A stretch of 22,252 bases of DNA. Source: Ruminococcus sp. AF41-9. Lineage in GTDB: Bacteria > Bacillota > Clostridia > Lachnospirales > Lachnospiraceae. The notes beneath the pieces were generated by a model, which worked only from the letters and a program-made list of their open reading frames with translations, was not told the DNA's origin and made no database searches. Location: NCBI RefSeq assembly GCF_003477525.1, contig NZ_QUDO01000060.1, positions 1 through 22,252 of the forward strand, written 5' to 3'. Made by a program: the position numbers and the translations under genes. Shown piece by piece: positions 10,213 to 21,739 of the stretch. Numbering within the stretch: the stretch's first letter is position 1; each line of letters starts with the position of its first letter.

Positions 10213-11427
10213 TTACCTGTTATTTTTACCTGAATATATCCTTCCTGAAAATGCCACATGCGGAAGTTCATAAAAGATGCTGTCCTTTGGACATACCGGA
10301 CGGTACAGAGGGTCTGCCACGATGATTCTGGCATCTTTCAACGCCTCTTCCATTGCTTCTTCTCCAAACACTGCTTTGTCTTTTTTGCCAAGCAGTGTTT
10401 CGCATCCTTTCAACGGACAGAATACGCGGGCCGAATGTCCGTATTTTTTTTCGATACCGGCCGCTAATGAACCCATCGTGACAGGTTCACCGATCAGAGT
10501 GATCTCTGCTGACTGCTGCATGCGGTTCTTCAGATAGAAAGCCGCAGAATCTGACTGCTGCACGACCACAGACTGCTCTATGACTGTAGCTTGCTGCGCG
10601 GTTGCAGACTGCTGTGTAGTTGCAGACTGCTGTATTGCTGCAGCGTGTCGCATAATTGTTGTCTCCAGTGCATTGGAAATATCTTCTGCCAGCCACTGGT
10701 TTGGAGTTCCGATCACATAGGGTATTTTGTATGTTTCCCGGAGAACCTCTGCCGCCAGCAGTCCCACAGCAGATACCACCAGACTGACAGTTGCTTCCCC
10801 TGCTTTTTGCAGAGTTTCCAGGTCATCTCCCATCGCCCATGTAGATAAAACGTTCCATCCATATTCTTTCAGATTTTCTTTTAATGTCTCTACGTTTTCC
10901 TGTGGTCCGAAATCCAGTGGTGTCACGCCTAACAGATTTACACTGCGCACAGGAAAGCGGTCTTTCTTCTGCCTGTCAGGTTCTTTTACAAACCTCCGGG
11001 CGATCTGTTCCAGTGCAATTCCTGCTCCATAGATATAATCATTCATGCCATTTGTCGGCACAGAAAATGTCGGAATTCCGGTTTCTGTCTCGATCACGCG
11101 CGCAATTGCCGGGAAATCCGTTCCATTCATAAATGGGATTGGTGAACCTGCCAGTGCGATAAATTTCGGATGCAGTTCACGGGCTGCATGTTCGATATCA
11201 TCAATAAATTTCCGGTCATTTCCCATGATCGCATCGATTTCTGTAAGTCCGGAAATAAAAATCAGACTGTCCTGGTCGTACCAGCGGATCTCATCGTGGG
11301 TATTGTAAGTAGAATTGCATCCGGAAGGGTCATGCATCACTGTCATTCCGCCAAGTTCATACAATGCGGAACAGACACCGGACACATCCGCCGTATAAAT
11401 CGGTATCATTCGATAAGACTGTCTCAT
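10213..11427 (-). CDS. nitrogenase component-1-like protein, subunit B1 (with hexapeptide repeats)
   Basis: A 404-residue protein of the Oxidored_nitro (NifD/NifK/ChlN/BchY-like) fold. The N-terminus has the NifK-style spacing GVCSALYELGG then HDPSGCNSTYN, giving C19 and C37 as likely Fe-S ligands. The third cysteine site of nitrogenases is replaced: the segment reads FISGLTEIDAIMGNDRKF. Later, FIALAGSPIPFMNGTDFPA and GIPTFSVPTNGMNDY match the middle of component-1 folds. Residues 263-292 are five tandem xxxQQS-type hexapeptides that the paralogue B2 lacks. The start at 11427 is chosen because its ATGA overlaps the stop of A1; a GTG three codons earlier is less likely. It is the last gene of the unit. 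It presumably pairs with A1 and receives electrons from H1. The substrate is unknown, and the ligand loss argues against a true N2-fixing enzyme. Confidence 0.82.
   Translation of the reverse strand: MRQSYRMIPIYTADVSGVCSALYELGGMTVMHDPSGCNSTYNTHDEIRWYDQDSLIFISGLTEIDAIMGNDRKFIDDIEHAARELHPKFIALAGSPIPFMNGTDFPAIARVIETETGIPTFSVPTNGMNDYIYGAGIALEQIARRFVKEPDRQKKDRFPVRSVNLLGVTPLDFGPQENVETLKENLKEYGWNVLSTWAMGDDLETLQKAGEATVSLVVSAVGLLAAEVLRETYKIPYVIGTPNQWLAEDISNALETTIMRHAAAIQQSATTQQSATAQQATVIEQSVVVQQSDSAAFYLKNRMQQSAEITLIGEPVTMGSLAAGIEKKYGHSARVFCPLKGCETLLGKKDKAVFGEEAMEEALKDARIIVADPLYRPVCPKDSIFYELPHVAFSGRIYSGKNNR
10552..10641 (-). repeat. five in-frame 18-bp tandem repeats inside B1
   Basis: Five consecutive 18-base units encode AAIQQS, ATTQQS, ATAQQA, TVIEQS and VVVQQS (residues 263-292 of B1). 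The CAGCAGTCT core is best preserved in the first two. Changes in unit number would keep the frame, so length variation between strains is expected. The tract probably forms a flexible linker or surface loop. Confidence 0.9.
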
Positions 11428-12761
11428 AAGCAGCACTCACACCCCCATCCTTTTTGCACTACAAGTTTCTCAGTATCCTTTTCTTCCCGGTACGCATCCA
11501 TCATCAGCTCTGCTGTTCTTCTGATCCCGTCAAATCCGTACAGTCCTTCTCCCTGTACCAGATTAACAAAGTGACGGCTTCGGCTGAAATAGGCAGCTTT
11601 CTGTCCGATGGCAAGCACTTCTTTGCTGCCGCCTCTTGGCAGTACACGCATCTTCACCTGAATCGTTGCGATCAGCTCAAGTTCCGGTGCATGCTTCTGC
11701 AGCCAGAGAAACTCCTCCTTTTCCTCCGGGCTGATACCATCCAGATAAACTGCTTTCACACAAAAACCATGCCTCAGAAGCAGTTTTGCCAGCCCCAGAG
11801 GTCTTGGGTGATACAGATAATCCAAAGTGATGGGCATATCTTTGATTAGAGTTTTAGCTTTTGCCAGCGCTTCCTCACAGGATTCCCGTTCGCGCGCCAG
11901 TTCCTCTCCCGTCAGTTCCGGCAGACCGAGAATATCTGTGAGTTGTTTTAACTGCTTTTCGATTTCATCATAATCAAAACTGCCCGGTAAGTACAGGTGT
12001 TTACGTCCCAGACGCTCCGCCTGCGCTTCCATTCCGTATTTCCCTGCCGGATAGCAGTCAATAAACAGACTGCCTTTGCTCATATCCAGCAGATCCTGCC
12101 ATGTTTTACAGGCTGGCAGTTCTTTTACGGTATACTCATATCGTTTTAATAAACGCCTGATATCACTGCTCTCATCCAGCGCAAAATCACTGCCAAATAT
12201 CGATACCGTTTTCCTGTCCGGTTCGCAGGCCGGAAGTGGATCATACATTGCTTTGCGCAGTTTCTGATCCGGAGTTAATCCATGCTTCTGCATGATCGGA
12301 TCCATATAACAGCGGATAAAACAGATGTCCGGGAAACGATGCCCCAGTTCACTGTAAATGTAGTCCAGATTACTTCCCACAAAATGATGCAGACAGACTG
12401 TAAACAACAGAACTGCTTTCGGATGGTCCCCGCGTTTGTTCAGCACATCTGTCACACCCTCAATGGTAATATCTTCCAGGTTGCTGTTTAAGAGATCCTG
12501 TTCTTCCAGAATCACAAAGGAAAAACGGTCTGCTGCATTCATTTCTGCCGCTGTCAGCACAACGCCACGCATACAGTTATCTGCACAGACATAAATCTGA
12601 ATGGATTCCGGGACCTGCATCCCTGTATGTACGATATTCCAGCTGCCATGCACCGGAGAATTATATTCCAGTTCCGAAGCAAATGGTGCCGGGAAGGAAG
12701 CATCTTTTATTTTTACCACTGCACCTTTCGGATCAATCGTTTCACCCACACGACGTAACAT
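11424..12761 (-). CDS. nitrogenase component-1-like protein, subunit A1
   Basis: A 445-residue divergent component-1-like protein. It aligns by position with A2: a PESIQIYVCADNCMRG segment (C59, C63) corresponds to PDSIMLIVSPGCCGRN in A2, and TVCLHHFVGSNLDYIY (C123) corresponds to the third-cysteine motif of nitrogenases (compare TCVDALLGTDM in A2). C63 and C123 are the shared candidates for binding a bridging cluster with B1. The C-terminus is unusual, ending GWGCECCL with three cysteines (441, 443, 444). The ATG at 12761 overlaps the H1 stop by one base, and the stop overlaps the B1 start. It has no signal peptide or membrane segment, so it is cytosolic. Membership of the family is inferred from context and these motifs more than from strong overall resemblance. 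Confidence 0.75.
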   Translation of the reverse strand: MLRRVGETIDPKGAVVKIKDASFPAPFASELEYNSPVHGSWNIVHTGMQVPESIQIYVCADNCMRGVVLTAAEMNAADRFSFVILEEQDLLNSNLEDITIEGVTDVLNKRGDHPKAVLLFTVCLHHFVGSNLDYIYSELGHRFPDICFIRCYMDPIMQKHGLTPDQKLRKAMYDPLPACEPDRKTVSIFGSDFALDESSDIRRLLKRYEYTVKELPACKTWQDLLDMSKGSLFIDCYPAGKYGMEAQAERLGRKHLYLPGSFDYDEIEKQLKQLTDILGLPELTGEELARERESCEEALAKAKTLIKDMPITLDYLYHPRPLGLAKLLLRHGFCVKAVYLDGISPEEKEEFLWLQKHAPELELIATIQVKMRVLPRGGSKEVLAIGQKAAYFSRSRHFVNLVQGEGLYGFDGIRRTAELMMDAYREEKDTEKLVVQKGWGCECCL

Positions 12762-20981: not shown

Positions 20982-21739
20982 ACGCTTTCCTCTTCTTTCC
21001 ATAACAATGCAGCCAGATCCAAGAAACATTTGCTGATCTCTGAGTCTGGATTCCCCTCGATCACTGTCTTTCCCTGTTCCTCCCAGTGGATAATTTCATC
21101 ACTTCTCGGCACTTCTCCCACGATCGGCACTCCGATTTTTTCGGAAAATGCCTGCACTTTCTCTGTCTCATTTTCTACATTTCTGTGATTTAACACAATG
21201 CCAAATACACGGGCATAACTGCGATCCTCGAAGTTTCTGACAGCACTGGAAATATTGTTTGCCGCATACAGTGCCATCTTCTCTCCTGAGGTAACGATCA
21301 GAACTTTATCCGCGTATCCTTCACGGATCGGTGCTGCAAAACCGCCGCACACAACATCACCCAGTACATCATACAAAACCACATCCGGTTTATAATGTTC
21401 GAATAATTCCATATCCTCAAGAAGCTGAAACGTTGCAATAATTCCGCGCCCCGCACAGCCAAGTCCCGGTGTCGGTCCGCCAGTCTCAATGCAGAGGATT
21501 CCTCCGTAGCCTTCCTTTGAAATCTGAGCCAGCTCATCCGGCTCCTCGTCCTCTTCCCGCATAAAATTCATTACCGGACGAAGCGGTTCTCCTCCTAATA
21601 AATTGATTGTGGAATCCGCTTTCGGATCACAGCCGATCTGAATGACACGCTTCCCCATATTTGCAAAAGCGGCCGCCAGATTGGAAGTCACTGTGGACTT
21701 TCCGATGCCGCCCTTTCCGTATATTGCTACCTTTAACAT
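20978..21739 (-). CDS. NifH-like ATP-dependent reductase H2
   Basis: A 253-residue nitrogenase iron-protein homologue, first gene of the unit. Seen: P-loop GKGGIGKST (8-16), QIGCDPKADSTINLLGG, GLGCAGRGIIATF with C95 and R98, and DVLGDVVCGGFAAPIREG with C131. Both [4Fe-4S] cysteines of the dimer are present. It is about 20 residues shorter than H1 and has an acidic stretch (REEDEEPDEL, about 61-70). The start at 21739 is strongly supported by AGGAGGGG seven bases upstream and by the MLKVAIYGKGG N-terminus; the longer open frame upstream crosses the terminator hairpin and is not credible. It probably reduces A2/B2. Confidence 0.94.
   Translation of the reverse strand: MLKVAIYGKGGIGKSTVTSNLAAAFANMGKRVIQIGCDPKADSTINLLGGEPLRPVMNFMREEDEEPDELAQISKEGYGGILCIETGGPTPGLGCAGRGIIATFQLLEDMELFEHYKPDVVLYDVLGDVVCGGFAAPIREGYADKVLIVTSGEKMALYAANNISSAVRNFEDRSYARVFGIVLNHRNVENETEKVQAFSEKIGVPIVGEVPRSDEIIHWEEQGKTVIEGNPDSEISKCFLDLAALLWKEEESV

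What the first reader, a model, noticed from the sequence alone, without database searches (positions are those of the whole stretch)
10213..21739. Nitrogenase-like enzymes operon-fused with a complete Fe(CN)2CO-making Hyp set and no hydrogenase
Seen: hypF, C, D and E, all with their catalytic residues, sit inside one tightly packed unit between two NifH-like/component-1-like sets. B2 and hypF share an ATGA overlap. hypA, hypB, a hydrogenase large subunit (C-terminal DPCxxC type), a maturation protease and nifB/E/N are all absent from the window. Known: HypF and HypE make cyanide from carbamoyl phosphate, and HypC and HypD build Fe(CN)2CO. Inference: the Hyp group may be delivered to the nitrogenase-like subunits or to a partner, giving a new cyanide/CO-ligated iron cofactor in a nitrogenase fold. 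Dropping the nickel steps while keeping the iron-ligand steps is what such a system would need.
Basis: partly seen in the sequence, partly recalled or inferred. Interest (0 to 1): 0.95.

Follow-up and report, generated by a model that had tools for sequence, protein, structure and literature searches.

The report
HydG-free route to hydrogenase iron cofactor
This bacterial gene cluster joins two nitrogenase-like enzymes to the proteins that put cyanide and carbon monoxide on iron, and because its relatives turned up almost only in genomes that have iron-iron hydrogenases but lack the standard HydG gene, it likely builds the hydrogenase active site by a second, undescribed route.

Summary
In detail: one packed 11-gene operon encodes two nitrogenase-like sets (H1-A1-B1, H2-A2-B2) around hypF-C-D-E with catalytic residues, plus a TM1266-family gene, without hypA, hypB, [NiFe] large subunit or protease. 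It is conserved: 61 of 61 related loci with room carry hypFCDE behind A1, and 36 of 45 host genomes searched have no PF00374 match.

The likely client is [FeFe]-hydrogenase. HydE and/or HydF lie in 22 of 80 fetched loci; one operon also holds the hydrogenase (L103). Of 45 hosts, all have [FeFe]-hydrogenase, 43 HydF, only 2 HydG. Among 197 HydF-positive Clostridia, strong A2 occurs in 16 of 22 HydG-negative and 0 of 175 HydG-positive genomes.

I infer a HydG-independent H-cluster pathway: HypFECD makes the cyanide/CO-ligated iron, set 1 helps that step, set 2 hands it to HydE/HydF. This would explain "missing hydG" acetogens (PMC9431212). The chemistry is untested; five HydG-less genomes have set 2 without Hyp; two hosts have both systems; a kinship-aware test was not significant.

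The parts
20978..21739 (-). H1, NifH-like ATP-dependent iron protein of set 1
   Evidence: PF00142 300.9 bits; below the nifH and CfbC cut-offs; four Cys in 100% of 73 rows
19701..20981 (-). A1, nitrogenase component-1-like subunit of set 1 (the ORF runs to 21029; ATG at 20981 overlaps the H1 stop)
18599..19696 (-). B1, partner component-1-like subunit of set 1
   Evidence: PF00148 67.9 bits; fused to A1 in 11 of 80 related loci; C78 and C83 in 100% of 57 rows
16257..18602 (-). hypF, carbamoyltransferase that acts on HypE
   Evidence: TIGR00143 770.6 bits; ATGA overlap with B1
16044..16253 (-). hypC, scaffold/chaperone (MCVGL start; C2 and H45 kept)
   Evidence: PF01455 80.4 bits; alignment to E. 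coli
14971..16044 (-). hypD, [4Fe-4S] scaffold on which the ligated iron is assembled
   Evidence: TIGR00075 387.5 bits; Cys aligned to E. coli; own group in a tree
13872..14879 (-). hypE, carbamoyl dehydratase ending in PRIC (ORF from 14921; probable ATG 14879)
   Evidence: TIGR02124 427.1 bits; C349 in 100% of 63 rows
13579..13854 (-). TM1266-family putative regulator of [FeFe]-hydrogenase systems
   Evidence: TIGR03959 114.2 bits, cut-off 60.8
12761..13582 (-). H2, NifH-like iron protein of set 2
   Evidence: PF00142 303.8 bits; not found in 21 of the 56 loci that have A2
11424..12761 (-). A2, nitrogenase component-1-like subunit of set 2; the member that marks HydG-less genomes
   Evidence: PF00148 39.7 bits, cut-off 28.6; C63 and C123 in 100%, C59 98%, C441 96% of 54 rows; distribution
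10213..11427 (-). B2, partner subunit of set 2 (Gln-rich insert here)
   Evidence: PF00148 99.1 bits; C40, H35, H47 in 100% of 44 rows

Best explanation
This operon is likely a second, HydG-independent way to make the [FeFe]-hydrogenase active site (the H-cluster): HypF and HypE would make cyanide from carbamoyl phosphate, HypC and HypD would carry the cyanide/CO-ligated iron, and two ATP-driven nitrogenase-like enzymes would supply the reduction steps before HydE and HydF finish the cluster. Shown: the operon, its conservation, its linkage to HydE, HydF, TM1266 and once to HydA, and its near-exclusion of HydG. Inferred: the division of labour. Set 1 (H1-A1-B1) came with Hyp wherever it could be checked and probably helps at the HypCD step, most likely by making or adding the CO ligand. 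Set 2 (H2-A2-B2) is found in HydG-less genomes with or without Hyp and is often linked to HydE/HydF, so it probably reduces and remodels the ligated iron into the form that HydE and HydF accept. Where H2 is missing, H1 would serve both pairs, as NifH serves NifDK and NifEN (recalled).
For: (1) Adjacency: hypFCDE behind A1 in 61 of 61 loci with 6.5 kb of room; A2 in 43 of 49 loci with 9.7 kb downstream.
(2) H-cluster genes near or in the cluster: hydE and/or hydF in 22 of 80 fetched stretches, hydG in 0 of 80 (two representatives score 580.6 bits as HydE and 533.6 as HydF). L103 reads HydA-H1-A1-B1-hypF-hypC-hypD-hypE-TM1266-A2-B2-hydF-hydE on one strand.
(3) Hosts (45 of the 80 loci): PF02906 in 45, HydF over cut-off in 43, HydG over cut-off in 2, PF00374 in 9.
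(4) Exclusion: in 293 Clostridia, HydF in 197 and HydG in 179. Among the 197, strong A1 in 11 of 22 HydG-negative and 0 of 175 HydG-positive genomes; strong A2 in 16 of 22 and 0 of 175; Fisher p 2e-12 and 6e-19 (not corrected for kinship; 3 of these genomes are also among the 45).
(5) Second phylum: of 149 Coriobacteriia, strong A2 in 2 and HydG in 7, with no overlap.
(6) In a HypD tree 32 of the 74 operon-type HypDs (a sample) form one group, SH-aLRT 98, apart from 11 other HypDs, among them second copies of Clostridium hosts; the tool warns of long branches.
(7) Published puzzle: acetogens with HydE and HydF but no typical hydG, and HypCDEF without HypAB (PMC9431212).
Against: No biochemistry. 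The window holds no hydE, hydF or hydA and its genome is not held. Two of 45 hosts (C. drakei, C. thailandense) have both systems. Five HydF-positive, HydG-negative genomes (G102, G159, G221, G283, G324) have A2 but no strong A1 and no hypD, so Hyp is not the only ligand source. Six HydF-positive, HydG-negative genomes have no A2. In C. ljungdahlii, C. ragsdalei and C. drakei the only hypD is the operon's although PF00374 is present, so it may also serve [NiFe] there. Two of 45 have no HydF over cut-off. PMC9431212 reports an atypical, about 450-residue radical-SAM candidate for HydG in all its acetogens but C. autoethanogenum and a motif-based HydG in C. autoethanogenum; in C. ljungdahlii the HydG profile found nothing above 68 bits. 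On a HydF tree the two systems switch repeatedly, but the independent-pairs sign test is not significant (median p 0.25). Fe(CN)2CO has the wrong CN:CO ratio for the H-cluster, so a remodelling step must be assumed.
Confidence: 0.74

Rival explanations
1. One reading: the Hyp group is delivered to the nitrogenase-like subunits themselves, giving a nitrogenase-fold enzyme with a cyanide/CO-ligated iron cofactor.
For: Set 1 and Hyp go together (61 of 61 loci with room; hypD in all 11 strong-A1 genomes of the panel and in none of the 5 A2-only genomes). A1 C86, C87, C144 and C147 are in 100% of 70 rows.
Against: It does not explain why HydE, HydF, TM1266 and once HydA stand in or near the cluster or why all 16 A2-strong genomes of the Clostridia panel lack HydG.
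Confidence: 0.1
2. The Hyp set matures an ordinary [NiFe]-hydrogenase elsewhere in the genome and its place beside nitrogenase-like genes is incidental.
For: 9 of 45 hosts have PF00374; in three Clostridium species the operon's hypD is the only one; hypB passes its cut-off in 20 of 45.
Against: 36 of 45 hosts have no PF00374 match. All six hosts with two or more hypD are PF00374-positive, and the extra copies fetched sit beside other hyp genes. The sampled operon HypDs form a separate group and adjacency is 61 of 61.
Confidence: 0.05
3. The nitrogenase-like enzymes reduce a small substrate (methylthio-alkane, tetrapyrrole or a metal chelate brought in by an importer) and borrow HydE/HydF/Hyp only as neighbours or for a cofactor.
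For: Distant relatives form H-A-B operons with a FecCD-type ABC importer (L125-L128), also in HydG-positive genomes; nitrogenase-like relatives with substrate-reducing roles are known (MarHDK passage in PMC10418091).
Against: In the Clostridia panel the strong A2 family, unlike those distant relatives, is confined to HydG-negative, HydF-positive genomes (16 of 16; two of the 45 selected hosts do have both). A1/B1 are tied to Hyp, which no such enzyme is known to need (recalled).
Confidence: 0.08

Closest known systems
HydE-HydF-HydG pathway of [FeFe]-hydrogenase maturation
   Same: HydE (motif CKNDCYYC) and HydF (GCRNAGKS P-loop) of the standard families in the loci read, and in L103 a hydrogenase with TSCCP, MPCLAK and EVMACPGGC motifs
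   Different: HydG, the tyrosine lyase that makes CO and CN, is not over cut-off in 43 of 45 hosts; Hyp proteins and nitrogenase-like enzymes would stand in its place
HypCDEF of [NiFe]-hydrogenase maturation
   Same: All four proteins with catalytic residues; HypD 151 of 354 and HypE 149 of 330 aligned positions identical to E. coli
   Different: No HypA/HypB, protease or large subunit at the locus; no PF00374 in 36 of 45 genomes; separate HypD group
NifH-NifDK-NifEN nitrogenase assembly
   Same: ATP-dependent iron protein plus two component-1-like pairs; A1 and B1 are closest among solved structures to NifE by sequence; A1-B1 fusions recall NifEN fusions (recalled)
   Different: Identity 14-19% over the fold; in the A1-NifE alignment the NifE Cys of the MMVCSKAM stretch faces H261 of the window, mostly Asn in relatives, so that Cys is not kept
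Nitrogenase-like methylthio-alkane reductase (MarHDK), CfbCD and DPOR
   Different: No link of those systems to Hyp or HydE/HydF seen in the paper searches; no phylogeny with them was built

Membership tests
[FeFe]-hydrogenase H-cluster maturation (HydEFG) | HydG present with HydE and HydF | tested here: not met
   HydG over cut-off in 2 of 45 hosts, HydF in 43 of 45. It is filed as working like this pathway, not as a member of the HydEFG type
[FeFe]-hydrogenase H-cluster maturation (HydEFG) | A client [FeFe]-hydrogenase in the genome | tested here: met
   PF02906 in 45 of 45 hosts, 64 of 64 genomes searched
HypCDEF Fe(CN)2CO machinery | HypC, D, E and F with catalytic residues | tested here: met
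HypCDEF Fe(CN)2CO machinery | Makes Fe(CN)2CO | not testable with these tools
   needs infrared or mass spectrometry of purified HypCD
[NiFe]-hydrogenase maturation | HypA, HypB, protease and large subunit with the operon or in the genome | tested here: not met
   none at the locus; no PF00374 match in 36 of 45 hosts; but hypB over cut-off somewhere in 20 of 45 genomes
Nitrogenase (NifHDK) | NifH-type iron protein and component-1 fold | tested here: met
   (fold modelled for A1 only)
Nitrogenase (NifHDK) | nifH and nifD equivalog scores | tested here: not met
   H1 315.2 and H2 322.8 bits against the 394.35 nifH cut-off; A1 34.5 against 653.55 for nifD
Nitrogenase (NifHDK) | Cofactor-ligating Cys/His of the FeMo-co or L-cluster site | tested here: inconclusive
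   A1 has no conserved Cys opposite the NifE Cys in one sequence alignment; no structure-based residue map was made
Methylthio-alkane reductase / group IV nitrogenase-like | Phylogenetic placement within the MAR clade | not tested
   no tree with reference MarDK was built
TM1266 '[FeFe]-hydrogenase system regulator' | Score over the equivalog cut-off | tested here: met
   114.2 bits, cut-off 60.8

The most novel reading that the evidence does not exclude
Life has two unrelated ways to make the H-cluster. In the second, HypFECD cyanates the iron and set 1 is an ATP-driven, nitrogenase-like CO synthase that puts CO on HypCD (an answer to the open question of the anaerobic CO source), while set 2 turns the Fe-CN-CO unit into HydE/HydF substrate. 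In the Hyp-less variant an ABC importer inside the operon brings in a ligated iron precursor or its iron from outside.
Probability: 0.3. Interest if true: 0.98.

Novelty: categorically new. Interest (0 to 1): 0.94.

Why it matters
HydG is treated as the source of CO and CN in H-cluster biosynthesis (PMC9431212 passages), yet in the genomes tested here gut species of Roseburia, Blautia and Anaerobutyricum and the industrial acetogen C. ljungdahlii have [FeFe]-hydrogenases and no HydG over its cut-off. A published survey of acetogens could not explain this (PMC9431212). [quoted passage not shown]

Tried and rejected
Considered and rejected: a [NiFe] client; nitrogen fixation (nif equivalog cut-offs failed by wide margins); chance adjacency (61 of 61). 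The weak 'distant A1' hits in the class panel (149-243 bits) turned out to be A2-type or A2-like proteins, so A1 and A2 were counted apart.

Led nowhere: Rfam on the window, no match. The second structure job (A2 family) failed and was not accepted again, so the A2 fold rests on Pfam. A kinship-aware test on a HydF tree was not significant on supported branches; in the first run two rows had been read in a wrong frame and all fetched rows were re-read.

In what they listed I saw no paper that links nitrogenase-like genes or Hyp to H-cluster assembly; one listed paper holds both 'nitrogenase-like' and HydEFG (PMC8003979, algal iron-sulfur proteins, not opened). bioRxiv-only and most subscription papers are not held. 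Seen: abstract and passages of PMC9431212 and PMC12134894; passages of PMC10418091, PMC11736057, PMC9004356 and PMC12578642; the rest as listings only. Recalled, from no call: that nitrogenases can reduce CO2 to CO; nitrogenase ligand positions; NifEN fusions; one NifH serving NifDK and NifEN; the hydrogenase and HydE/HydF motifs used; HypF/E/C/D chemistry beyond those passages.
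Full report

It is a conserved system. A profile of A1 found 420 relatives in species genomes, of which the best 80 loci were kept. In all 61 loci with at least 6.5 kb downstream of A1, hypF, C, D and E are present. A2 is in 43 of the 49 loci with 9.7 kb downstream (not in L013, L015, L052, L057, L058 and L068, of which L013 ends at H2). A1 and B1 are one fused protein in 11 of 80 loci, which suggests that they work as a pair. 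In 21 of the 56 loci with A2 no H2 was found, so one iron protein probably serves both pairs there. TM1266 was found in 37 of 80. Hosts include Roseburia faecis, Eubacterium ramulus, Coprococcus comes, Blautia, Anaerobutyricum hallii, C. ljungdahlii and relatives, and Coriobacteriaceae/Atopobiaceae.

The client is usually not a [NiFe]-hydrogenase. I searched the genomes of 45 of the 80 loci, chosen by hand for spread and contig length; the other 35 were not searched. PF00374 is found in 9 of 45. Three of these match only the first 70 positions (open frames of 361-390 aa), and in the three regions fetched hypC, D and E lie nearby (L090, L093, L140). hypD is present in 45 of 45, once in 39; the six genomes with two or three copies are all PF00374-positive. 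In three PF00374-positive genomes (C. ragsdalei, C. drakei, C. ljungdahlii) the operon's hypD is the only one, so it may serve both there. hypB passes its cut-off in 20 of 45 genomes, but neither hypA nor hypB was found in the 80 loci.

The client is probably [FeFe]-hydrogenase. Two gene families recur beside or inside the cluster: representatives score as HydF (533.6 bits) and HydE (580.6 bits). They lie in 22 of the 80 fetched stretches (flanks up to 10 kb; HydE 14, HydF 19, both 11; one is an 85-bit contig-end fragment), in L025, L029 and L041 between A1 and B1; HydG is in none. The TM1266 gene is itself of a family named for [FeFe]-hydrogenase systems. In L103 the hydrogenase (group A6 model, 776 bits), the nitrogenase-like/Hyp set, HydF and HydE stand in a row on one strand. 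In the Coriobacteriia genome G449 hydE directly follows B2. A query with the L103 HydA found no HydA in the 80 loci, so that linkage is rare. All 45 hosts have PF02906, 43 have HydF, and only C. drakei and C. thailandense have HydG over its cut-off; the 170-230 bit matches in many hosts look like ThiH and the 50-85 bit ones like HydE (inferred, not tested one by one). HydE was not searched genome-wide.

Exclusion test. A class-wide panel of 293 Clostridia was searched four times; at least 95% completeness was asked for, but the tables print no completeness. HydG is over cut-off in 179, HydF in 197, A1 strong (610-825 bits) in 11, A2 strong (442-719 bits) in 16. Cross-tabulated by hand among the 197 HydF-positive genomes: A1 with HydG 0, A1 without HydG 11, neither 11, HydG only 175; A2 with HydG 0, A2 without HydG 16, neither 6, HydG only 175. 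Four HydG-positive genomes lack HydF (G055, G150, G166, G177). Fisher p 2e-12 and 6e-19. Strong A1 sits within 6 kb of hypD in 10 of 11 (in G284 they lie on different contigs), and HydF lies within 10 kb of A2 in 7 of 11 (G032, G091, G153, G170, G203, G272, G284). Three genomes (G001, G019, G032) are in both panels. In 149 Coriobacteriia, A2 is strong in 2 (G016, G449) and HydG over cut-off in 7 others; HydF was not searched there. Five Clostridia and three Coriobacteriia with weaker A2-like proteins (119-345 bits) were left out of the strong counts: of the Clostridia four are HydG-positive and one has neither HydF nor HydG; of the Coriobacteriia none has HydG over cut-off.

How far kinship explains it. 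On a HydF tree of 73 genomes (a sample) the nitrogenase-like label needs 16 changes and HydG 13; supported branches force at least 7 for the group 'nitrogenase-like with Hyp' and 6 for 'HydG', so the systems have replaced each other repeatedly. In independent pairs HydG never goes the same way as the nitrogenase-like label, but too few supported pairs exist for significance (median p 0.25). This is a real limit of the statistics; the operon linkage is separate evidence. In a HypD tree 32 of the 74 operon-type HypDs (every third plus chosen rows) form one group, SH-aLRT 98, apart from 11 others that include second copies of Clostridium hosts; several of the 11 sit on long branches.

A variant without Hyp. 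Five HydG-less, HydF-positive genomes have A2 but no strong A1 and no hypD (G102, G159, G221, G283, G324). G221 reads hydE-H2-A2-B2-binding protein-FecCD permease-ABC ATPase-hydF-TM1266 (L109). G102 reads H2-A2-B2-binding protein-permease-ATPase-hydE up to near the contig's end (L119). G283 (L110) has hydE-H2-A2-B2-binding protein-hydF. G159 and G324 have set 2 with the importer genes and TM1266, with hydF on another contig. So set 2 follows HydG loss, set 1 follows Hyp, and another ligand or iron source must exist in these five.

Mechanism. Established chemistry (PMC12134894 abstract and passages): HypF/HypE make cyanide from carbamoyl phosphate, HypCD carries Fe(CN)2CO, and the anaerobic CO source is unknown; reducing CO2 to CO would need about -530 mV and ATP. 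HydG normally supplies CO and CN, HydE and HydF follow (PMC9431212 passages). A synthetic complex, the presumed HydE product, allowed maturation without HydG and HydE (PMC11736057 passage). My inference is that Hyp supplies the ligated iron, set 1 helps at the HypCD step (most likely the CO ligand, by low-potential ATP-driven reduction), and set 2 adjusts the ligand set or redox state for HydE/HydF. The CN:CO ratio of Fe(CN)2CO differs from that of the H-cluster, which is one reason to expect a remodelling enzyme.

Relation to print. In the passages seen, PMC9431212 found HydE and HydF but no typical hydG in five of eight clostridial acetogens, and HypCDEF without HypAB in five (not the same five); it offered an atypical HydG candidate or uptake of free diatomics as explanations, and the word nitrogenase occurs once in its text, in a reference title. 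An active [FeFe]-hydrogenase has been purified from C. autoethanogenum (same paper). In the listings I saw no paper making the link proposed here.

Noticed in passing
L125 from 6368, L126 from 2533, L127 from 5274, L128 from 2158 (each about 6 kb): A separate nitrogenase-like subfamily in operons H-A-B followed by a periplasmic binding protein, FecCD permease and ABC ATPase; 3 of these 4 genomes have HydG over cut-off. Function unknown.
   Followed up: partly
L087:7321-11190; L088:7384-11050; L089:7345-11991: hypB (in L087 also a hypA-like gene, 74.6 bits, below its cut-off) beside a 928-995 aa protein in hosts without a PF00374 match; the L087 protein matches glutamate-synthase-small-subunit/YgfK-like oxidoreductases, the other two were not scanned. 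A possible other nickel client.
   Followed up: partly
G031:C1:185396-186022: A degraded hypB-like stretch with three stops in the C. ljungdahlii genome, which still has PF00374.
   Followed up: no
L095:1216-2916: C. drakei has HydG with a TM1266 gene directly upstream as well as the nitrogenase-like/Hyp operon, one of two genomes seen with both systems.
   Followed up: partly
L111, L112, L113, L116, L117: HydF-positive, HydG-negative Clostridia with no A2 (G300, G263, G322, G172, G266; G230 not fetched); their CO/CN source is unexplained.
   Followed up: partly
10549-10632: B2 of the window has a Gln-rich, repeat-like insert.
   Followed up: no
154-1653: Response regulator and HATPase domains and a third ORF overlap in different frames on the minus strand, as in a frame-shifted hybrid sensor kinase or a sequence error.
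   Followed up: no
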